Both the position numbers and the translations under genes were made by a program. This document shows, piece after piece, positions 11,049 to 62,778 of a stretch of 64,000 nt of DNA. This DNA comes from Pseudorhodoferax sp. Leaf267 (GTDB lineage: Bacteria > Pseudomonadota > Gammaproteobacteria > Burkholderiales > Burkholderiaceae_C): assembly GCF_001422405.1 (NCBI RefSeq), contig NZ_LMMV01000001.1:1197817-1261816 (forward strand), given 5' to 3'. Position 1 is the stretch's first letter. Every line of letters starts with the position of its first letter. The notes beneath the pieces were generated by a model. It did not search any database. It was not told the DNA's origin and was given only the letters and a program-made list of their open reading frames with translations.

Positions 11049-12848
11049 TCACTTCGGCGGCTTCACCTGCTGCTGAAATGTGCCCACGAGTTCACCCTTG
11101 GCCAGCACGTGGCCGCGCATAGCCGCCAGCAACTGGTCGCGATCGGCACCGGGCGGCACCTGCAGCACGGTGTCGAGCGCGAACACCTGGAAGTGGTAAT
11201 GGTGCGGCGGGTCCATCACGGGCGGGCGCGGGCCGAAGTAGCCTGGCGAGCCGCGCGTGGTGGCGCCTTGCAACACGCCGTCGGGCTCGGTCAGCCGCAG
11301 CTGTTCCTGCAAGCCCTCGGGCAGGTGCGTGACGGTGGCCGGGATGTTCCACGCCAGCCAGTGCACGAACGGCGTCACGGGCTTGGCGTCCGGGTCTTCC
11401 ATCACGATGGCGTACGACCTGGTGCCGCTGACCGCGGACCATGACAGCTGGGGCGACACGCCATCGGCGTACTCGCTGTGCTTGGGTGGTATCGCCGCCT
11501 GTGGCGCGATGGTGGCCGACGTGACCGTGATCGTTGCCGCAGTGCGCGTCTCCTCGCGGTCCTTGGCTAGCGGCACGCCACTGCCCTGCATCGCCTGCTG
11601 CTGCATGGGGCCGGCCGGCGCTGTGGCGGCAGCCACCGGGGTCGTGCCGCCGCGGTAGGCCACGCGGTAGATCGTGCCGTTGGCATCGTCGGACATCAGC
11701 AGCGCGCCGTCCTTGGCCAGTGCCAACCCGACTGGCCGTGCAATGTGGGTCTTGCCGCCGTCGGTCAAAAAGCCGGTGACGAAGGGCTCGAACTTCTGCG
11801 GCTTGCCATCCGCAAAGCGCACGCGCACGATCTCGTAGCCCGAGGCCGGGTTGCGGTTCCACGAGCCGCGCATGGCGACGAACGCGTCGCCCGTGTACTG
11901 CGCCGGAAACGCGCCGCCCGGGTAGAACAGCATCTGCATGGGTGCGGCATGGGCCGTGTAGCCCAGCGCCATGGGCGTGCTGAGCGCCTTCCACTGCTCC
12001 TTGCTGATGTCGCCGACCGGCGTGCTCTGAGGGTTCACGCCGCCTGCGCCCCAGATGTGCGGCCAGCCGTATTGCTTGCCGCGTTCGATCCTGTTGAGCT
12101 CCTCGGGCTGCACGTCGTCGCCCAGGAAGTCGATGCCGTGGTCCATACCCCACAGCTCGCCCGTGCGTGGATCCCAGCCGAAGCCGATGGTGTTGCGCAG
12201 CCCGCTGGCGAAGATGGTGCGGCTCTTGCCGTCGGGAGATGCGCGCAGCAGTGTGGCGTTCTCGGGGTTGGACTCGTTGCACGCATTGCAGGTGGAGCCC
12301 ACGCTGATGTAGAGCATGCCGTCGGGGCCGAACGCGATGGTGCGGTTCGGGTGCTGGCCCGAGTCGGGCAGGTCGCCGAGCAGCATCTCCAGGTCGCCTA
12401 GCGTGCCGTCGGGCTTGATGGGTGCCTTGAAGACTTCCTTGACGGTGGCGATGTATAGGCTGCCATCGCGGATCGCCAGGCCATGCGCGCCGGCCCGGCT
12501 CGCGACGATGAGCCCGCCGTTGTCGGCCCGACCATCGCCGTCCTCGTCGCGCAGCATCACCACGTCGCCCTGGTCGCGCCGGCTGACGTAGACCGTGCCA
12601 TCAGGCGCCACCGCCAGGATGCGCGCGTTCTTCAAGCTGTTGGCGAACACCGAGACGCTGAAGCCCTCTGGCGCCTTGATCGCGGCCAGGCGCTCCTGCG
12701 TCAGGTCCACCTTCGCGGGCTTGAAGACATTGGTGCGGATCGGCACGTCGGTGCCGTCGCCCTGCTGGGCAAAGGCGCCCAGCGCGAGGCCGGCAGAGGC
12801 TGCGGCCACGGCGGCATAGCGCAGCATGTGGAAGGGTCTGTTGGTCAT
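11049..12848 (-). CDS. PQQ-type sugar dehydrogenase fused to a YbhB/PEBP domain
   Basis: This is a 599-residue exported two-domain protein. After a signal peptide (residues about 1-28, ending AFA), residues about 40-430 form a six-bladed beta-propeller of the soluble glucose/sorbosone dehydrogenase family. Motifs include PEGFSVSVFA, HPNRTIAFGPDG, ASGLRNTIGFGWDP, YGWPHIWG and ARPVGLALAKDGALLMSDD. Residues about 470-599 form a YbhB/YbcL-type phosphatidylethanolamine-binding-protein domain (GVSPQLSWSAV, VMEDPDA, HWLAWNIP, GYFGPRPP). A linker rich in Ala, Pro and Gln joins them. The cluster CNACNESNP suggests an inserted Cys pair. The dehydrogenase probably oxidises a sugar or alcohol in the periplasm. 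AAGG precedes the ATG. Confidence 0.88.
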   Translation of the reverse strand: MTNRPFHMLRYAAVAAASAGLALGAFAQQGDGTDVPIRTNVFKPAKVDLTQERLAAIKAPEGFSVSVFANSLKNARILAVAPDGTVYVSRRDQGDVVMLRDEDGDGRADNGGLIVASRAGAHGLAIRDGSLYIATVKEVFKAPIKPDGTLGDLEMLLGDLPDSGQHPNRTIAFGPDGMLYISVGSTCNACNESNPENATLLRASPDGKSRTIFASGLRNTIGFGWDPRTGELWGMDHGIDFLGDDVQPEELNRIERGKQYGWPHIWGAGGVNPQSTPVGDISKEQWKALSTPMALGYTAHAAPMQMLFYPGGAFPAQYTGDAFVAMRGSWNRNPASGYEIVRVRFADGKPQKFEPFVTGFLTDGGKTHIARPVGLALAKDGALLMSDDANGTIYRVAYRGGTTPVAAATAPAGPMQQQAMQGSGVPLAKDREETRTAATITVTSATIAPQAAIPPKHSEYADGVSPQLSWSAVSGTRSYAIVMEDPDAKPVTPFVHWLAWNIPATVTHLPEGLQEQLRLTEPDGVLQGATTRGSPGYFGPRPPVMDPPHHYHFQVFALDTVLQVPPGADRDQLLAAMRGHVLAKGELVGTFQQQVKPPK

Positions 12849-13126
12849 GGGTGCCTTGGAGAACGGGGGATGGGCATGAGCGCCGGCTTGCAGTGTGTGA
12901 ACGCGGCCACGCATTGCCGTGTCGGCTGCACCGGCCGCACGCCGTAGGACCGCGCGACCGATTGCAGCTGCAGCACGCACCGGCAGCCAAGCATCGGTCG
13001 GCGTCACGGCATCGCCACTGACGGGCCCGCAGCTGAATCGGCCATGGCGCGCAGGAGCGATGCCTACGCGGCCGCGTGCAGGGGTGCAGCATCCTGGAGG
13101 CCCCACAACCCAAAGAGGAACCCACG

Positions 13127-13615
13127 ATGGCCACCCGTCAAACTCCAGATGCATGCACGCTGCTCGACGCCGATCACCGCAACGTGAAGAAGATGTTCAA
13201 GGAGTTCGAGGAACTCACGAACTCCAAGGCCAAGTCCGCAGTGCAGAAGAAGCGTGAACTGGCCGACCAGATCTGCCGCGAGCTGACCGTGCACGCGCAG
13301 ATCGAGGAAGAAATCTTCTACCCCGCCCTGCGCTCGGCCACCAAGGCCGGCGACCTGCTCGACGAAGCCGAGGTGGAGCACTCGACCGCGAAGGACCTCA
13401 TCGCCCAGATCGAGCAAGGCGATGAGAGCGACCCGAAGTGGGATGCCAAGGTCATCGTGCTGGGCGAGTACATCGACCACCACGTCAAGGAAGAGCGCGG
13501 CGAGATCTTCGTCAAGGCGCGTGCTGCGCGCGGCCTGGATCTGGTGGCCATGCGCGATGAGCTGCAGGCGCGCAAGGACGCGCTCATGGAAGAAATGGCC
13601 GCTGCAACTGCCTGA
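13127..13615 (+). CDS. Hemerythrin HHE-domain protein
   Basis: This 162-residue protein has a hemerythrin-type four-helix bundle with a di-iron site. The expected His and Glu ligands are visible in LLDADHRNVKKMF, VHAQIEEEIFYP, EVEHSTAKDLI and YIDHHVKEERGEIF. Such proteins bind oxygen, or respond to nitric oxide or iron, in the cytoplasm. The start at 13127 has a GAGGAA ribosome-binding site 8 bases upstream. The gene stands alone, divergent from the dehydrogenase fusion, and is followed by a strong hairpin. Confidence 0.92.
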   Translation: MATRQTPDACTLLDADHRNVKKMFKEFEELTNSKAKSAVQKKRELADQICRELTVHAQIEEEIFYPALRSATKAGDLLDEAEVEHSTAKDLIAQIEQGDESDPKWDAKVIVLGEYIDHHVKEERGEIFVKARAARGLDLVAMRDELQARKDALMEEMAAATA

Positions 13616-26638: not shown

Positions 26639-26944
26639 TCAGGGCCGCAGCGCAACCGACGGCCAGGCTGTAAAAAGTATCGCGATCAACGCAAGGGCAG
26701 TCGCTCCGCGCGCGAAGCGCAGCTTCCAGCGAGCAAGCTCGCCGGTGGCATCGGCGTGCTCAAGCCGCCAGTGAACAACACCCACGGCCGCCAGCGCGAC
26801 GACAGTGAAGCCCCATGCCGACACATGGTTCCACCAACGGTGGGGCGAGAACTCCGACACTGCCCAGCATGCGAGGAAGTGGAAGAACCAGATCGACAGC
26901 GCATTCAGCACGGGCTGCCAGCTGGCTGGCCGGTTGGCGTTCAT
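26639..26944 (-). CDS. Small membrane protein of the oxidase cluster
   Basis: This 101-residue protein has three predicted membrane helices (around NALSIWFFHFLACWAV, FTVVALAAVGVVHW and ATALALIAILFTAW). Its ATG at 26944 overlaps the stop of the fused COX I/III gene as ATGA, so it is co-translated with the oxidase. A role as an oxidase accessory subunit or assembly helper is inferred from position and size. No named family was recognised. Confidence 0.75.
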   Translation of the reverse strand: MNANRPASWQPVLNALSIWFFHFLACWAVSEFSPHRWWNHVSAWGFTVVALAAVGVVHWRLEHADATGELARWKLRFARGATALALIAILFTAWPSVALRP

Positions 26945-29541
26945 GTGCCGCCCCACGGCACCAAACGCGGCAGCAGCAACGCGGCGCTGCCCTCAAGCGC
27001 TGTGTAGATGAACAGCAGGCGCAGCGCCTCCAGCGTCTTATTGACAGGCGCGGGCGTCAAACCTCGCATCCAGCGTGCAAGGTAGTACAGCGCGCTGAGT
27101 ACGACCGCAAAGACAATTACCCCGTGCCAGGCCAACATGACGAAGATTGAGGCACCTTGAGCGCTCGCATCGCCGCGCAGGCCCGAGTTCCACCAGTCGA
27201 GCACATCGACGGCCAGCGCAGCGGTCAGGCAGGTGGCGCTGAGCGCCATCAGCGCAGCACTGATGCCCGGGCCGTACCGCAGACGCGCCAGCGCCGGACG
27301 TGCCGCCAAAGCCAGCGCGGCCGCGGCCCCTAGCAGCACGAGGCCGCTGACCAGTGCGCCCTGCGGTGCGGTGACCCGCCCCCAGTCGGGATGGGATCCG
27401 AACAAGTACAGGTAGCTGAACATCGCCATCAGAAAGATCATTCCGAGCACGATGTCGAGCAGCACCGCAGCCCACCAGCCGTGCGACTGCGGGCCCGTGA
27501 AGTACGTGGGCAGCCGAATGCCCGCACCGACGTCCACATGCTGTTGCTCGATGTGACGGTCGCTGTCCCACAACCAGCGCATCAGACTCGCGATCGCCAT
27601 CACGCCACATACCGCGCACAGCACCATCGCCTTCACCGTCAGCAGCAAAAAGAATCCCGCGGTGAACAGGGCCGCGAGAAATGGCCACCACGAAGGCCCG
27701 GGCATGATCTGCAGATACTGTGGCTCTGCGCGCGAGGTGCTCGTGATCAGCGTCTCGCGGTGCCCGGTGGCGGTGTTCGGCAGGAAGTATCGGCCTGCTT
27801 CCACGTCCTTCCGCAATTGGGGGTCGGCCCACAGCGGCTCGAGGTGATTGATCACGGGTATCGAGCGCACAGCATAGTTGGCCGCAGACAGCCACTCCAG
27901 CGTGCCACCGTTGAAAACGTTGCGCGCGTTGCCGTCCGTTCCACGGCTGAAGCAGCGCACGGCATCGATTAGGAACAGCAGCACTCCAGCGGCCATGATG
28001 AATGCGCCGACGGTCGAGACGAGGTTGGGCAGGCCCCACAGACGCTCGGGCAGGTAGGTGTCCACCCGCCGCGGCATGCCCATCAGGCCGGTCAGGTGCA
28101 TCGGCAGGAAGCAGACATGCACGCCGACGAAACTCAGCCAGAAGACCCAGCGGCCGAGTCTTTCGGAAAGCTGCCGACCGACGAGCATGGGCGTCCAATA
28201 GTAGAAGCCGGCGAACAGCGGGAAGACCATGCCGCCAATCAACACGTAGTGAAAATGCGCGACGACGAAATAAGTGTCGTGCGCTTGGCCGTCGAACGCC
28301 ACCATGCCCACCATCACGCCCGTCAGCCCGCCCATCACGAAGATCAGGATGCCGCCGACGAGGAAGAGTGAGGGCACGTTGCGTTGCGGGCGGCCCGACG
28401 CGAGCGTGGCGATCCACGCGAAGACCTGCGCCCCGGCCGGGATCGCCACCGCCATCGACGCCGCCGAGAAGTAGCCCGAGGAGAGGTTGGGCAGGCCGAC
28501 GGTGAACATGTGATGAGCCCAAACGCCGAAGCTGATGAACGCGGTGGCGACCATGGCAAGCACGACCATCTCATGGCCGACGAGCTTCTTCTGCGCCACC
28601 GTGACGACCATCGTCGACACCATCGCCGAGGCCGGCAGGAAGATGATGTACACGTCGGGGTGTCCGAAGAACCAGAACAGGTGCTGGTACAGCAGCGGGT
28701 CACCGCCCCGGGTTGCGTCGAACATCGGCCAGTTGAACGCGCGTTCCACCTCAAGCAGCAGCGTGACGAGGATCATCGCGGGAAAGGCCAGGATGATCAT
28801 CACGCCGAAGATCAGCACCGCCCACGCATAGATCGGCATCTTCGTCAGCGTCATCCCAGGCGCGCGGGTGCGAAGCACGCCGACAATCAGTTCGATCGCG
28901 CCGGCGATCGCGCTGATCTCGATGAAACCGATGCCAAGCAGCCAGAAGTCTGCGTTGATGCCCTTGGAGTAGGTGCCCGAGCTCAGCGGGGGGTACATGA
29001 ACCAGCCGTCGGAGGGCGCCAAGCTGAAGAAGATCGAGCAAAAGAACACCGAGCCGCCGATCGCGTAGGCCCAGTACGAGAACGCCGAGAGGCGCGGGAA
29101 CGGCAGGTCGCGGGCGGCCACCATCTGCGGCAGCAGCAGCACCGCGATGGCCTCGACTGCTGGCACGGCGAAGAGGAACATCATCACCGAGCCATGCATG
29201 GTGAACAGCTGGTTGTAGGTCTCCTGAGGCACGATGCCGGCCAGCGGCGCGGCCAGCTGCACGCGCATCACCAGCGACAGGATGCCCGCGGCCACGAAGA
29301 ACGCGAAGGCAGTCACGATGAACATGAAGCCGATGACGTTGTTGTTGACGTCGCTCAGGCGCTGCCAGCCCTGGGGCGAGGCCCACACCGTCTCCAGTGC
29401 CTCCAGCTCTCCGGCGGGCCGACCGCCCTGCGTCGGGAAGCGTTGGTACAGGCGCGCGTCGAAGCCAGTCTCGGAGGGCTCGGCCGCGGCGTCGCGCACA
29501 GCGCCGTCGACCCCAGGCACACCGGCGCTGTGGGCCGTCAC
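26941..29541 (-). CDS. Cytochrome c oxidase subunits I and III, fused
   Basis: The 866-residue membrane protein joins COX I (about residues 60-560) to COX III (about 620-866). Haem and CuB ligands are visible: His in TMHGSVMMF, H294 and cross-link Y298 in FGHPDVYII, the pair in AHHMFTVG, and HFHYVLIGG. The COX III part has LDIVLGMIFLMAMFSYLYL. Unusually, D296 replaces the normally conserved channel Glu in HPEVY, and Q372 in AGAQVFAW stands where A-family oxidases carry the K-channel Lys (TGIKVF). The GTG start overlaps the COX II stop (GTGA). It reduces oxygen in the inner membrane with electrons from COX II. Confidence 0.95.
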   Translation of the reverse strand: MTAHSAGVPGVDGAVRDAAAEPSETGFDARLYQRFPTQGGRPAGELEALETVWASPQGWQRLSDVNNNVIGFMFIVTAFAFFVAAGILSLVMRVQLAAPLAGIVPQETYNQLFTMHGSVMMFLFAVPAVEAIAVLLLPQMVAARDLPFPRLSAFSYWAYAIGGSVFFCSIFFSLAPSDGWFMYPPLSSGTYSKGINADFWLLGIGFIEISAIAGAIELIVGVLRTRAPGMTLTKMPIYAWAVLIFGVMIILAFPAMILVTLLLEVERAFNWPMFDATRGGDPLLYQHLFWFFGHPDVYIIFLPASAMVSTMVVTVAQKKLVGHEMVVLAMVATAFISFGVWAHHMFTVGLPNLSSGYFSAASMAVAIPAGAQVFAWIATLASGRPQRNVPSLFLVGGILIFVMGGLTGVMVGMVAFDGQAHDTYFVVAHFHYVLIGGMVFPLFAGFYYWTPMLVGRQLSERLGRWVFWLSFVGVHVCFLPMHLTGLMGMPRRVDTYLPERLWGLPNLVSTVGAFIMAAGVLLFLIDAVRCFSRGTDGNARNVFNGGTLEWLSAANYAVRSIPVINHLEPLWADPQLRKDVEAGRYFLPNTATGHRETLITSTSRAEPQYLQIMPGPSWWPFLAALFTAGFFLLLTVKAMVLCAVCGVMAIASLMRWLWDSDRHIEQQHVDVGAGIRLPTYFTGPQSHGWWAAVLLDIVLGMIFLMAMFSYLYLFGSHPDWGRVTAPQGALVSGLVLLGAAAALALAARPALARLRYGPGISAALMALSATCLTAALAVDVLDWWNSGLRGDASAQGASIFVMLAWHGVIVFAVVLSALYYLARWMRGLTPAPVNKTLEALRLLFIYTALEGSAALLLPRLVPWGGT

Positions 29542-30536
29542 TTCAACGATTCCATGTAAGCCGCCAGCGCGCCGAGCTCAGCCCCGCTGAGCGAGCGGTA
29601 GGCGGGCATCCGGTTGTTTGGCTTGATCGACTGGCTGTCGCCGATCCAGCCGATCATCGTGCCGCGGTTGTTCGGCAGGATGCCGGCCCCCAGCGAGCGC
29701 CGCGCACCGACAAAGCTGAGATCGGGGCCGGACAGGCCCTGCGCCGAAGTGCCTGCGATGCGGTGGCACGCCGCGCAGCCGACCTCGCCGAAAAGCCGCC
29801 GGCCGCGCTCGACTTCGGTGTTCGCGACAGGTGCAGGCTTGATCGCCGTGGTCGATGCCGGCGGCTGTCGTGCCGCCAGCCAGCGTTGCCAGTCGGCGGC
29901 GTCGTGCGCAACCACGACGAAGCCCATCAGCGAATGCGCGCCGCCGCAGAACTCCGCGCACTGCCCGCCGTAAACGCCGGGCTTGTCGGCCTGCAGCTTC
30001 AGGCGGTTGGTGCGGCCCGGGATCATGTCCATCTTGCCGCCGAGCTTGGGCACCCAAAAGCTGTGGATGACATCCTCGGACACCATGTCGATCACGACCG
30101 CCTGGCCGACGGGGATGTGCAGCTCATTGGCATCGGCCAGCCACTCGCGCCCGGCAGCGTCCAGGTAGGACACGCGCCACCAGTAGATGTTGCCGGCGAT
30201 GCGCATGCGCAGCTCGTCGCCCCGAATGGTCGTCAGGCCCGACACCAGCGCCATGCTCCAGACCAGCAGAAGAAAGAGCACTCCTGCCGGCACGATCAAC
30301 CCGAACCATTTGACGACGCGCTCGCCGCCCAGCTTGGCGCGAAGCCCGTCGCTGCCGTACAGCGCCACCCACATCGCGGCGCAGACGAGCACGAAGATCA
30401 GCCCCATCAGCGCCATCAGCCCCCAGGCCAGCGTCGTGACCGTGTTTGAGAACGGCCCCTGCGGGTCGAGTACTGGCGGCGGCCAGCCGCGCAAGGCCTC
30501 AGCGAGACTTGAGCTGGAGAAGGTAGGCTGTGACAT
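29538..30536 (-). CDS. Cytochrome c oxidase subunit II with C-terminal cytochrome c domain
   Basis: The 332-residue subunit has two N-terminal membrane helices, a cupredoxin domain with the CuA ligands in GQCAEFCGGAHSLMGF, and a C-terminal cytochrome c domain with haem motif CAACH and a distal Met in NNRMPAY. This is the caa3-type arrangement. The ATG at 30536 lies 38 bases inside the preceding cytochrome c gene, which is a long overlap. It forms the electron entry site for the fused subunit I/III. Confidence 0.93.
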   Translation of the reverse strand: MSQPTFSSSSLAEALRGWPPPVLDPQGPFSNTVTTLAWGLMALMGLIFVLVCAAMWVALYGSDGLRAKLGGERVVKWFGLIVPAGVLFLLLVWSMALVSGLTTIRGDELRMRIAGNIYWWRVSYLDAAGREWLADANELHIPVGQAVVIDMVSEDVIHSFWVPKLGGKMDMIPGRTNRLKLQADKPGVYGGQCAEFCGGAHSLMGFVVVAHDAADWQRWLAARQPPASTTAIKPAPVANTEVERGRRLFGEVGCAACHRIAGTSAQGLSGPDLSFVGARRSLGAGILPNNRGTMIGWIGDSQSIKPNNRMPAYRSLSGAELGALAAYMESLK

Positions 30537-30912
30537 CGCGGGCTTCCTGGTCCGACATGGGCATGACCGGCATCGCAGTGCCGGGCACCATCGCGGGTGC
30601 ACTGCGAACAAACTGCATCAGCACGCCGGGCTGGTTGGGCAGCCGGCCGGCAATGAGGCCTTGCCCGCCGAAGTTTTCCAGCGAGGGTCCCAGAGCGCCG
30701 CGCGGCCAGGCGACGTCAGGGAAGGTGTGACAGGCCACGCACCCCTTCGTTGAGACCAATCGAATTCCGCGGGCGACATCGGCCTCGTCGAGCCGTGGCG
30801 TTCGATCAGGAGGTCCATCGCAAGCGGCCAAGCCGCATGCTGCCATGCAGACCACCATCCACAGGCAACAACGCTTGCCCCGGGCAACGATTGAGTCACA
30901 CTTGCGTCCCAT
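30499..30912 (-). CDS. Cytochrome c lipoprotein
   Basis: The protein of about 137 residues has an N-terminal lipoprotein signal (CMAACGLAACDG, with the lipidated Cys in LAAC). A single class I cytochrome c domain follows with CVACH and a likely axial Met in MPVMPMS. It probably carries electrons in the periplasm to COX II, encoded immediately downstream. The start at 30912 shares the bases CATG with the start of the divergent cytochrome gene; a later ATG at 30858 would still give a short lipoprotein signal. Confidence 0.85.
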   Translation of the reverse strand: MGRKCDSIVARGKRCCLWMVVCMAACGLAACDGPPDRTPRLDEADVARGIRLVSTKGCVACHTFPDVAWPRGALGPSLENFGGQGLIAGRLPNQPGVLMQFVRSAPAMVPGTAMPVMPMSDQEARDVTAYLLQLKSR

Positions 30913-32980: not shown

Positions 32981-34273
32981 CTAGCGTGCCGGTGCCACGC
33001 GCCAGACGGTGTTCGATAGATCGTCGGCCACGATCACGGCACCGCGCGGGTCGACTGTCACCCCGACCGGCCGCCCCATGGTCTTTGCGTCATGTTGGAA
33101 GCCGGTGAGGAAGTCTACCGGCGGGCCGCTCGGTCGGCCCTCGCGGAACGGCACGAAGATCACCTTGTAGCCCACCGGCACCGAGCGGTTCCAGCTTCCA
33201 TGCAAGCCGACGAAGGCGCCTTCGGCGAAACGGGAATCGGCGTTGCTAGACGCGGCGAACGCGACGCCCAGCGGTGCCGAGTGCGACTGCAGTGCGTAGT
33301 CGGGCCGGACTGTCATCTTCACCTTGGCATCGTCCTGTGGGCGCACCCGGGCATCGACGTTCTGTCCCCAATAGGCATATGGCCAGCCGTAAAAGGCTCG
33401 CTCGCGCACCGAGGTCAGGTAGTCCGGCACTAGGTCAGGCCCCAATTCGTCGCGTTCGTTGACCACTGCCCACAACTGCTTCAGACGCGGCTCAATGGCG
33501 AGTGCCGTAGGGTTGCGCAATCCAGTGGCATACGGCCGAGTTGCACCGGTCTGCGCGTCAACCTCCCAGATCATCGCTCGGTTCTCTTCGATCTCCATGC
33601 CACGCTCCCCGACATTGCTGTTGGAGCCGATGCCTACGTAAAGGTGGCGTCCGTCGGGACTTGCCGTCAACGCCTTGGTCCAGTGATGATTGACGGCCGA
33701 TGGCAGCAGCGCGACGGTGACCGGCGCTGCCGATGCCCGGGTCTGGCCTGTCTGATAGTCAAAGCGCACCAGCGCATCTTGGTTTGCCACGAAGAGTTGG
33801 TTGCCGATCAGCGCCAGTCCATAGGGTGCGTCAAGCTTTTCCGCGAACACCCAGCGACCTTCGTACTTACCGTCACCATCGGCATCGCGAAGCAACGTCA
33901 GGCGGTCACCGCTCTTTGCCTTGGTCGTTCCCTTGGCTTTGATAAACCCGGCGATGTAGTCCTTCGGGGTCAGCACCGGAGCGCCACCGCCCTTGCCTTC
34001 CGCGACAAGAATGTCGCCGTTAGGCAGTACAAGCGTCTGCCGGGGAACCAGCAGGTCGGTCGCGATCGCGGCGACGGTGAAGCCTTCAGGAGCCTTCGGC
34101 AACTTGCCGGACCAACTTGCAGGCTCGGCGATTTTCATGCTGGGCAGCAGGCCGCCGCTCGGTTCCGGCAGACCATCGATGGCTCCAAATTGTGTCCCAA
34201 CGGTTGCGTCCTGGCTGCATCCGGCGAGACCCGCGCAGGCGAACGCAAGGATCAAAACAAGAGATGCCTTCAT
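32981..34273 (-). CDS. PQQ-type (sorbosone/glucose dehydrogenase-like) lipoprotein
   Basis: The 430-residue protein has a lipoprotein signal (CAGLAGC, lipidated Cys about residue 19) and a six-bladed propeller of the soluble sugar dehydrogenase family: PEGFTVAAIATDL, LPNGDILVAEGKG, HHWTKALTASPDG, TGLRNPTALAIEP, YGWPYAYWG and GRPVGVTVDPRGAVIVADD. It is anchored outside the inner membrane and could feed electrons to the nearby cytochromes. It is distinct from the PEBP-fused dehydrogenase at 11.0-12.8 kb. Its start overlaps the DUF2231 stop as ATGA, so they are co-transcribed. Confidence 0.9.
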   Translation of the reverse strand: MKASLVLILAFACAGLAGCSQDATVGTQFGAIDGLPEPSGGLLPSMKIAEPASWSGKLPKAPEGFTVAAIATDLLVPRQTLVLPNGDILVAEGKGGGAPVLTPKDYIAGFIKAKGTTKAKSGDRLTLLRDADGDGKYEGRWVFAEKLDAPYGLALIGNQLFVANQDALVRFDYQTGQTRASAAPVTVALLPSAVNHHWTKALTASPDGRHLYVGIGSNSNVGERGMEIEENRAMIWEVDAQTGATRPYATGLRNPTALAIEPRLKQLWAVVNERDELGPDLVPDYLTSVRERAFYGWPYAYWGQNVDARVRPQDDAKVKMTVRPDYALQSHSAPLGVAFAASSNADSRFAEGAFVGLHGSWNRSVPVGYKVIFVPFREGRPSGPPVDFLTGFQHDAKTMGRPVGVTVDPRGAVIVADDLSNTVWRVAPAR

Positions 34274-34713
34274 TGGTGAGCCCTCCGGCCCAACCGTGTA
34301 AGCCCGACCACCGATGCGGCCATCGCCACAACCATCACGAGCATGGAGAGAATCGGCGCGGCAGGCATCGCAGCCCAGCCATCCTTCGCGTGCACGAACG
34401 CGTTCGCTATCCCGAGGACAACGGTGACGGCGAGCAGTGCAACGTCAAGCCATCGGCGACCCGCGTGGCGCCTGGGACTCACAATTTCGGCAACAGCGGC
34501 CCACGCCAGAGCGACGCCCGCAAGCGTCAGTCCTCCGACGTTAAGCCAGTCGGCAAAGTTGGTCCATTGAATCTGGTACGAGGACGCGTACGCCCAGTCG
34601 GTGAGGAGAGCGCCGAGGAACAACGGAAGCGAGGAGACCGTCACGACAGTATGCATTTGCCACAGCGGAACTCCGTTGACGGTCAACCGGTCCGGGCCTC
34701 CACTTGTGCTCAT
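34270..34713 (-). CDS. DUF2231 membrane protein
   Basis: The 147-residue protein has four hydrophobic segments and matches the DUF2231 family (GVPLWQMHTVVTVSSLPLFLG, TNFADWLNVGGLTLAGVALA). DUF2231 proteins occur beside periplasmic dehydrogenases and cytochromes and may carry haem or interact with quinones, which is inference. ATG at 34713 is taken; one at 34728 is in frame. It is the first gene of a pair with the PQQ-type lipoprotein. Confidence 0.85.
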   Translation of the reverse strand: MSTSGGPDRLTVNGVPLWQMHTVVTVSSLPLFLGALLTDWAYASSYQIQWTNFADWLNVGGLTLAGVALAWAAVAEIVSPRRHAGRRWLDVALLAVTVVLGIANAFVHAKDGWAAMPAAPILSMLVMVVAMAASVVGLTRLGRRAHQ

Positions 34714-34728
34714 GTTGCCTGTCACCAT

Positions 34729-60543: not shown

Positions 60544-62778
<2,235 letters not shown>

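What the first reader, a model, noticed from the sequence alone, without database searches (positions are those of the whole stretch)
26941..29541. Fused COX I/III with altered proton-channel residues
The usually invariant Glu of HPEVY is Asp (D296) and the K-channel Lys of TGIKVF is Gln (Q372 in AGAQVF). The loop after the D-channel Asp reads FPRLSAFSYW where Asn residues are normal. An oxidase lacking the standard K-channel Lys would need another proton path.
Basis: partly seen in the sequence, partly recalled or inferred. Interest (0 to 1): 0.65.

Follow-up and report, generated by a model that had tools for sequence, protein, structure and literature searches.

The report
Cytochrome oxidase lacking its K-channel lysine
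This is an oxygen-consuming respiratory enzyme from a branch of bacterial cytochrome oxidases in which amino acids that normally form one proton channel, and the gate of the other, have been replaced, so it offers a natural test of how such enzymes move protons.

Summary
The gene lies on the minus strand (29541 to 26941, 866 aa, subunits I and III fused). The six haem/copper histidines and the active-site tyrosine are kept. Asp296 replaces Glu286 (Rhodobacter numbering), Gln372 replaces Lys362 and Ser152/Ala153 replace Asn139/Asn140; Asn121 and Asn207 are also gone (Val134, Glu217).

Most of this is not private to the gene. Gln stands at the Lys site in 79 of 79 readable relatives, which form one supported branch with CoxN-type oxidases. 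Subunit II lacks the K-channel entry Glu in 60 of 60 proteins. Glu130, Glu208 and Glu217 are conserved instead. No Lys lies in a membrane helix of subunit I. Asp296 is the rare change: its motif occurs in 2 of 369 genomes of the class, apparently by two origins.

dN/dS of 0.07 says the gene is maintained. Best reading: an active oxidase fed mainly through a Glu-rich D-side route without the usual asparagine gate, possibly decoupled from pumping. Pathway and pumping are inferred, not measured.

The parts
26941..29541 (-). Fused cytochrome c oxidase subunit I+III, 866 aa (GTG start as listed)
   Evidence: PF00115 E 4.4e-138; TIGR02891 652.8 bits, just under its 670.75 cut-off; model pLDDT 88.1, pTM 0.91; aligned with 2yev I+III
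28426..28428 (-). Codon of Gln372 at the Lys362 (K-channel) position
28435..28437 (-). Codon of Ala369 at the Thr359 (K-channel) position
28654..28656 (-). Codon of Asp296 at the Glu286 (end of D channel) position
28891..28893 (-). Codon of Glu217 at the Asn207 position; Glu in 87 of 88 clade rows
28918..28920 (-). Codon of Glu208, Glu in 88 of 88 clade rows and 0 of 58 Lys-bearing rows
29086..29088 (-). Codon of Ser152 at the Asn139 (gate) position
29107..29109 (-). Codon of Asp145, the D-channel entry Asp132, kept
29140..29142 (-). Codon of Val134 at the Asn121 (gate) position
29152..29154 (-). Codon of Glu130, clade-conserved (84 of 85 rows with a letter)
29538..30611 (-). Subunit II (CuA domain) fused to cytochrome c; K-channel entry Glu absent
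   Evidence: PF00116, PF00034
30499..31017 (-). Mono-haem cytochrome c
   Evidence: PF00034; c-type cytochrome at the same place on Novosphingobium plasmid pLA4
30845..31600 (+). Di-haem cytochrome c, opposite strand
   Evidence: PF00034, two stretches; opposite-strand c-type cytochrome at this place on pLA4 and in L037, L038, L046, L110
31539..32642 (-). Cytochrome b561 (domain in residues 171-346 of this ORF)
   Evidence: PF01292
32183..32956 (-). CtaG-type oxidase assembly factor
   Evidence: PF09678
32981..34273 (-). Sorbosone/glucose dehydrogenase-like protein, candidate source of electrons (inferred)
   Evidence: PF07995; near the oxidase genes, in other places and orientations, on Sphingobium, Bosea and Sinorhizobium plasmids
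34270..34728 (-). Protein next to the dehydrogenase, as the gene annotated DUF2231 in relatives
   Evidence: no Pfam hit; named by neighbourhood only
26639..26956 (-). Small 105-aa protein directly after the oxidase gene
   Evidence: a small hypothetical gene stands at this place on six plasmids, but by sequence only L036 and L120 matched

Best explanation
It is a working cytochrome c oxidase (O2 reductase) of a proteobacterial branch of the A family in which the K channel was dismantled and the D channel rebuilt. Shown: intact metal and tyrosine sites; no K-channel Lys, no subunit II entry Glu and none of the three D-channel Asn; D-channel entry Asp and a terminal acid (here Asp296) kept; three conserved Glu (130, 208, 217) that canonical enzymes lack, one of them exactly at Asn207; purifying selection. 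Inferred: most or all protons, for water formation and any pumping, enter from the cytoplasmic side through this acidic D-type route, and because the Asn gate is gone pumping is weakened or absent, as in Asn139 mutants of model enzymes.
For: Residue counts clade versus canonical and one clade in the tree, support 1.0. Gln in 79 of 79 readable relatives, which were chosen by similarity and not by Gln, and invariant in the 67-row alignment. Subunit II entry Glu: motif in 0 of 60 clade proteins and no Asp/Glu in that column, while 30 of 39 canonical loci looked at hold the motif. No Lys in a helix of four or more residues within 57-560. dN/dS 0.068. PMC12901375 (passages): the Asn139-site mutants N98D, N98T, N98S keep O2 reduction and lose pumping, and the Lys-site mutant K319M blocks haem a3 reduction. 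PMC4321873 (passages): even charge-neutral mutations around Asp132/Asn121/Asn139 can decouple.
Against: No activity or pumping data for any member were found. Mutant behaviour in one scaffold need not transfer. Three CoxN-type members (L113, L114, L161) have Asn at the entry Asp132, so a D-type entry is not universal in the clade. In all 88 clade rows at least one of the K-channel Ser299/Thr359 sites keeps a polar residue, and Gln is invariant, which fits a residual K-type path.
Confidence: 0.5

Rival explanations
1. A K-type channel still works without Lys: Ser309, Gln372, Tyr298 and ordered water carry the protons of the reductive phase, much as the B family uses Thr/Ser/Tyr, with an entry other than the subunit II Glu.
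For: B and C families have K-type channels without Lys (PMC3084760; PMC12901375). Gln is invariant rather than drifting. No row of 88 has lost a polar residue at both Ser299 and Thr359: the 23 rows with Ala at Ser299 all keep Thr, and the 8 rows with Ala or Met at Thr359 all keep Ser.
Against: The window protein has Ala at Thr359. The entry Glu is lost in 60 of 60. The B-family Tyr (at the Ser299 site) and Thr (at the Lys site) are absent.
Confidence: 0.33
2. Protons for oxygen chemistry come partly or wholly from the periplasmic side, so the enzyme is weakly electrogenic or non-electrogenic.
For: Both cytoplasmic channels are altered, and three members also lack Asp132.
Against: Entry Asp132 is kept in 79 of 88 rows, with Glu in 4 more (Asn 3, gap 2). 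By alignment the new Glu lie at or near D-channel positions.
Confidence: 0.1
3. Not an oxidase in practice: a decayed or repurposed protein.
For: Divergent branch (stem 0.28-0.30) and loss of textbook channel residues. In C. necator inactivation of coxMNOPQ showed no fitness effect in the conditions tested (PMC11540253, passage).
Against: Histidine ligands and Tyr kept, dN/dS 0.068, and CuA subunit, cytochromes and CtaG beside it.
Confidence: 0.05

Closest known systems
CoxN of coxMNOP (described as ccaa3 or bb3-type oxidases; rows assigned here by operon layout and recall)
   Same: Same clade, Gln at the Lys site, Glu at 130 and 208. Subunit II with a cytochrome c domain just before it in L112.
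   Different: In L112 a separate COX3-like gene follows instead of a fusion, and a PQQ-type dehydrogenase-like gene precedes (read by eye). Asn139 is kept in the five CoxN-type rows, and three of them have Asn at Asp132.
Thermus thermophilus caa3 oxidase (2yev), subunit I+III fusion
   Same: Foldseek's first match and the longest alignment shown by VIA-align (Z 40.1, 758 residues; single-subunit chains reach Z 42.2); subunit II with cytochrome c in the window.
   Different: Thermus A-family oxidases have the D- and K-channel residues except the Glu (PMC5641340, passage). The window protein lacks the Lys and the D-channel Asn and keeps an acid at the Glu site.
Rhodobacter/Paracoccus aa3 (A1 type; 1m56, 2gsm, 1ar1)
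   Same: Fold (497 residues, 1.8 A to 2gsm), ligands, entry Asp, Ser299, Tyr288.
   Different: Lys362, Thr359, Asn121, Asn139, Asn207, Glu286 and subunit II Glu101 replaced.
A2-like group with HPAVY and Met/Leu at the Lys site (L149, L150, L151, L163, L164)
   Same: Also without the K-channel Lys.
   Different: Tyr/Phe at Ser299, Val at Thr359, Ala at Glu286; D-channel Asn121, Asn139 and Asn207 kept; separate branch.

Membership tests
A-family haem-copper O2 reductase, A1 type (residue definition in PMC3084760) | CuB and haem histidines plus Tyr-I in HPxVY | tested here: met
   H116, H294, H343, H344, H429, H431 and Y298 invariant in the 67-row alignment
A-family haem-copper O2 reductase, A1 type (residue definition in PMC3084760) | D-channel set incl. 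Asp124, Asn113, Asn131, Asn199, Glu278 (Paracoccus numbering) | tested here: not met
   Asp kept, Glu is Asp, all three Asn replaced
A-family haem-copper O2 reductase, A1 type (residue definition in PMC3084760) | K-channel set Lys354, Thr351, Ser291, Tyr280 (Paracoccus numbering) | tested here: not met
   Gln372, Ala369, Ser309, Tyr298: two of four kept
A-family haem-copper O2 reductase, A1 type (residue definition in PMC3084760) | Grouping by sequence and fold with A-family subunit I | tested here: met
   PF00115; A-family chains head the PDB sequence list (to 394 bits) and fill the 50 rows shown of each fold list; B-family ba3 chains follow at about 60-72 bits
B-family oxidase | Thr at the Lys site and Tyr at the Ser299 site | tested here: not met
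   Gln372 and Ser309
coxMNOP oxidase | Subunit I in the same clade as CoxN | tested here: met
   that the rows are CoxN rests on operon layout and recall
coxMNOP oxidase | Doublet of separate COX3 homologues (feature of subtype a-III in PMC6431628; its link to coxMNOP is recalled) | tested here: not met
   Subunit III is fused to subunit I here
caa3-type I+III fusion oxidase | I+III fusion and subunit II carrying cytochrome c | tested here: met
Naturally decoupled (non-pumping) oxidase | O2 reduction without proton pumping | not testable with these tools
   needs purified enzyme

The most novel reading that the evidence does not exclude
A whole branch of A-family oxidases, often carried on plasmids, has abandoned the K channel and the asparagine gate and runs on a single Glu-lined proton route, as naturally gate-less and perhaps decoupled oxidases; in the Variovorax member even the terminal Glu is shortened to Asp.
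Probability: 0.35. Interest if true: 0.75.

Novelty: new variant of a known kind. Interest (0 to 1): 0.5.

Why it matters
In model A-family enzymes the K-channel Lys is needed to reduce haem a3, and changes at the asparagine gate can remove pumping. A natural clade that has made both changes and is kept by selection would show whether two proton channels are really required, and offers an experimental system for the coupling problem. It also warns that public records can misname these enzymes ('cbb3-type') and that full pumping should not be assumed for them in energy budgets.

Tried and rejected
Lys at an equivalent 3D position: rejected; only four Lys lie in residues 57-560, none in a helix of four or more residues. 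Alignment shift at the Lys site: rejected, spacing is gapless. Pseudogene: rejected, dN/dS 0.068. Peculiarity of this gene alone: rejected for Gln372 and the Asn residues, kept for Asp296; a second HPDVY protein (L175) falls in another subclade, with a modest support of 0.79 for that subclade and 0.938 for the node that separates it from the window's lineage. A degenerate DNA pattern for the Gln motif hit 8 of 150 genomes of the phylum. Opening the ten hits showed an oxidase with both motifs in G000 (two), G042, G465 and G509; G069 has the motif in an oxidase split over two frames; L181 and L188 lack HPxVY and were not identified; L182 and L189 showed no open frame with the motif. The pattern missed the CoxN-type gene of G070 (L161), so it is only a rough lower bound. 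Distances between residues could not be measured: model coordinates are not given to scripts.

Rows dropped: one search lost L005 and L115 (no frame matched the regular expression). The 67-row alignment used 66 of the 80 loci: L062, L093 and L108 were dropped for a stop or X, and eleven (L045, L052, L057, L059, L064, L072, L074, L105, L107, L109, L115) were never put in. One search left out identical cores (L036 equals L007), matches under 300 query residues, and loci L002, L004, L006, L008 and L116-L122. The 88 'clade' rows were chosen by Gln at the site, so Gln 88 of 88 there is by definition; the independent counts are those. The 60 subunit II proteins (window and near-identical L007/L036 included) were picked by a CuA regular expression; canonical ones were picked by the Glu motif itself, found in 30 of 39 loci looked at, and the other 9 were not examined further. 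The 'close subclade' was listed by hand from the tree.

Literature: ten searches found no paper on Lys to Gln in this clade; only open-licence PMC papers are held. Of the papers cited I saw passages found by terms, and of PMC8239418 also the outline and section 12. Degli Esposti 2020 and the supplementary figure that classifies K-channel variants (named in PMC8239418) could not be read. Recalled and from no call: that N207D decouples and that E286D stays active in Rhodobacter, the original CoxN work, and Rhodobacter numbers beyond those.
Full report
What was checked. The stretch 26941-29541 holds one 866-residue open frame on the minus strand. It matches subunit I of haem-copper oxidases (PF00115, E 4.4e-138) and falls slightly under the cut-off of the NCBI model for ordinary subunit I (TIGR02891, 652.8 against 670.75 bits). 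Its AlphaFold model (67-row alignment, pLDDT 88.1, pTM 0.91) has the fused subunit I+III of Thermus caa3 (2yev) as Foldseek's first match; VIA-align gives 2yev 758 residues at 2.3 A, Z 40.1, the longest alignment shown, while single-subunit chains reach Z 42.2. So the fusion is real although Pfam recognises only the first half.

The residues. Spacing to the metal ligands is gapless, so Q372 is at the Lys362 position (Rhodobacter numbering; equivalents in Table 2 of PMC12901375) and D296 at Glu286. In addition Thr359 is Ala369, Asn121 is Val134, Asn139 is Ser152, Asn140 is Ala153 and Asn207 is Glu217. Asp132 (D145), Ser299 (S309), Tyr288 (Y298) and the six histidines are kept.

A replacement Lys was sought and not found. 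Residues 57-560 contain only Lys 193, 234, 318 and 319, none in a helix of four or more residues of the model; 234 sits in a three-residue turn between membrane helices. Across the clade, at positions the window protein has, no new conserved Lys, Arg or His appears; the newly conserved charged residues (at least 90% of the clade, under 10% of canonical rows) are Glu130, Glu208, Glu217, Glu264, Asp526 and Glu266, the last mostly in place of an Asp. Distances could not be measured because coordinates are not released to scripts.

It is a clade, not an oddity. 79 gave a readable frame, and all 79 have Gln at the Lys site; they also have Glu at 208 (79), at 217 (78, Ser 1) and at 130 (75, Gln 1, gap 3), with Asn139 kept in 4 and Asp132 kept in 71 (Glu 4, Asn 2, gap 2). 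The 67-row alignment has Gln invariant. In a tree of 151 subunit I cores these proteins, with the second fused paralogue of the same genome (L027) and CoxN-type proteins (L108, L112, L113, L114, L161), form one branch with support 1.0 (FastTree, midpoint root). In the Gln-defined set of 88 against 58 Lys-bearing rows: Asn121 becomes Ile 47, Val 32, Met 3, Leu 3, Ala 1, gap 2 (canonical Asn 57, gap 1); Asn139 becomes Ser 56, Gly 13, Thr 11, Ala 1, gap 2, with Asn kept in 5 (canonical Asn 58); Asn207 becomes Glu 87, Ser 1 (canonical Asn 58); Asp132 is Asp 79, Glu 4, Asn 3, gap 2; Glu286 is Glu 86, Asp 2.

Subunit II agrees. The K-channel entry Glu (Glu101 of subunit II; PMC8239185) sits in a motif E-x-x-W-x-x-[VIL]-P that I found in 30 of 39 canonical loci looked at. 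None of 60 subunit II proteins of the clade, window included, has it, and the column holds no Asp or Glu: Ile 17, Val 14, Leu 11, Trp 7 and others; Lys in the window protein. Both ends of the textbook K channel are therefore gone together.

Asp296 is the rare change. The DNA pattern for FGHPDVYI occurs in 2 of 369 genomes of the class, the own genome being one, and a related pattern in 2 of 6 of the genus (one further member of the genus has this gene only in pieces that leave out the site). The second class hit, L175, is a clade member that groups with L043, L044, L048 and L052 (support 0.79), so Glu to Asp apparently arose twice. The window gene and its 94% identical relative in Variovorax boronicumulans (L036) differ with dN/dS 0.068, so the Asp enzyme is maintained by selection.

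Surroundings. On the same strand lie subunit II fused to cytochrome c, a further cytochrome c, cytochrome b561, CtaG, a sorbosone-type dehydrogenase and a DUF2231-like neighbour, with a di-haem cytochrome c on the other strand. The core order CtaG, cytochrome b, cytochrome c, subunit II, subunit I+III, small gene stands on a Novosphingobium plasmid, with the opposite-strand cytochrome c, and in L037, L038, L046 and L110 as far as CtaG to subunit I+III goes; a Sphingobium plasmid has it with a hypothetical gene at the cytochrome c place. The dehydrogenase and DUF2231 pair moves about: same strand upstream in Variovorax, opposite strand upstream in L046, L110 and Sinorhizobium, opposite strand downstream on the Sphingobium plasmid, and no sorbosone-type dehydrogenase is listed in the stretch shown of the Novosphingobium plasmid. 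In 82 loci it was found by sequence in 9. A cytochrome c oxidase fed by periplasmic dehydrogenases is a natural reading, but the donor is inferred.

How it probably works. In model enzymes the Lys-site mutant blocks haem a3 reduction, while N98D, N98T and N98S (the Asn139 site) keep O2 reduction and lose pumping (PMC12901375); even charge-neutral changes around Asp132, Asn121 and Asn139 can decouple (PMC4321873). The window protein carries Ser at exactly the Asn139 site and an acid at Asn207. The simplest reading is that protons enter by Asp145 and an acidic D-type route without the Asn gate, through the conserved Glu to Asp296, with pumping weakened or lost. Against it: three CoxN-type members have Asn at Asp132; invariance of Gln suggests it has a task; no row of 88 has lost polar residues at both Ser299 and Thr359; and the B family shows that a K-type channel can work without Lys (PMC3084760). 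I put the D-type reading at 0.5 and the Gln-lined K path at 0.33.

Known or new. By fold and sequence it groups with A-family oxidases; by the residue definition of A1 (PMC3084760) it fails both channel sets, so I call it a variant and do not file it as A1. K-channel variants and losses in archaeal A-family enzymes have been discussed (PMC8239418), and a separate A2-like group here has Met/Leu at the site. Ten searches found no account of the Gln clade, but the 2020 review and supplements were not readable.

Noticed in passing
L149, L150, L151, L163, L164 (COX1 cores): A second group without the K-channel Lys: HPAVY enzymes with Met or Leu at Lys362, Tyr/Phe at Ser299 and Val at Thr359, from five genomes of the same phylum as the window.
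   Followed up: partly
L113, L114, L161: CoxN-type oxidases with Asn at the D-channel entry Asp132 as well as Gln at Lys362, so neither textbook channel entry is intact.
   Followed up: partly
G000:C12:386424-388859 (L027): The same genome carries a second fused oxidase of the clade (46% identical) with HPEVY and Gln at the Lys site, beside aa3- and bo3-like enzymes (L001, L003) that keep Lys.
   Followed up: partly
window 11049-13154 (-) and 60544-62778 (+): A second glucose/sorbosone-dehydrogenase-like protein fused to a phosphatidylethanolamine-binding domain, and a large catalase in the same window; Sphingobium plasmid pSH1 also has a catalase near this oxidase cluster, suggesting a stress-related gene set.
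   Followed up: no
plasmid records H1-H7: Public annotation calls these enzymes 'cbb3-type cytochrome c oxidase subunit I' although by sequence they go with the A-family-like clade.
   Followed up: no
L178 and L180 (Peteryoungia and S. meliloti plasmids): The gene just before subunit I, where other members have subunit II, is annotated 'sodium:calcium antiporter', with c-type cytochrome genes before it; either a misnaming or an inserted gene.
   Followed up: no
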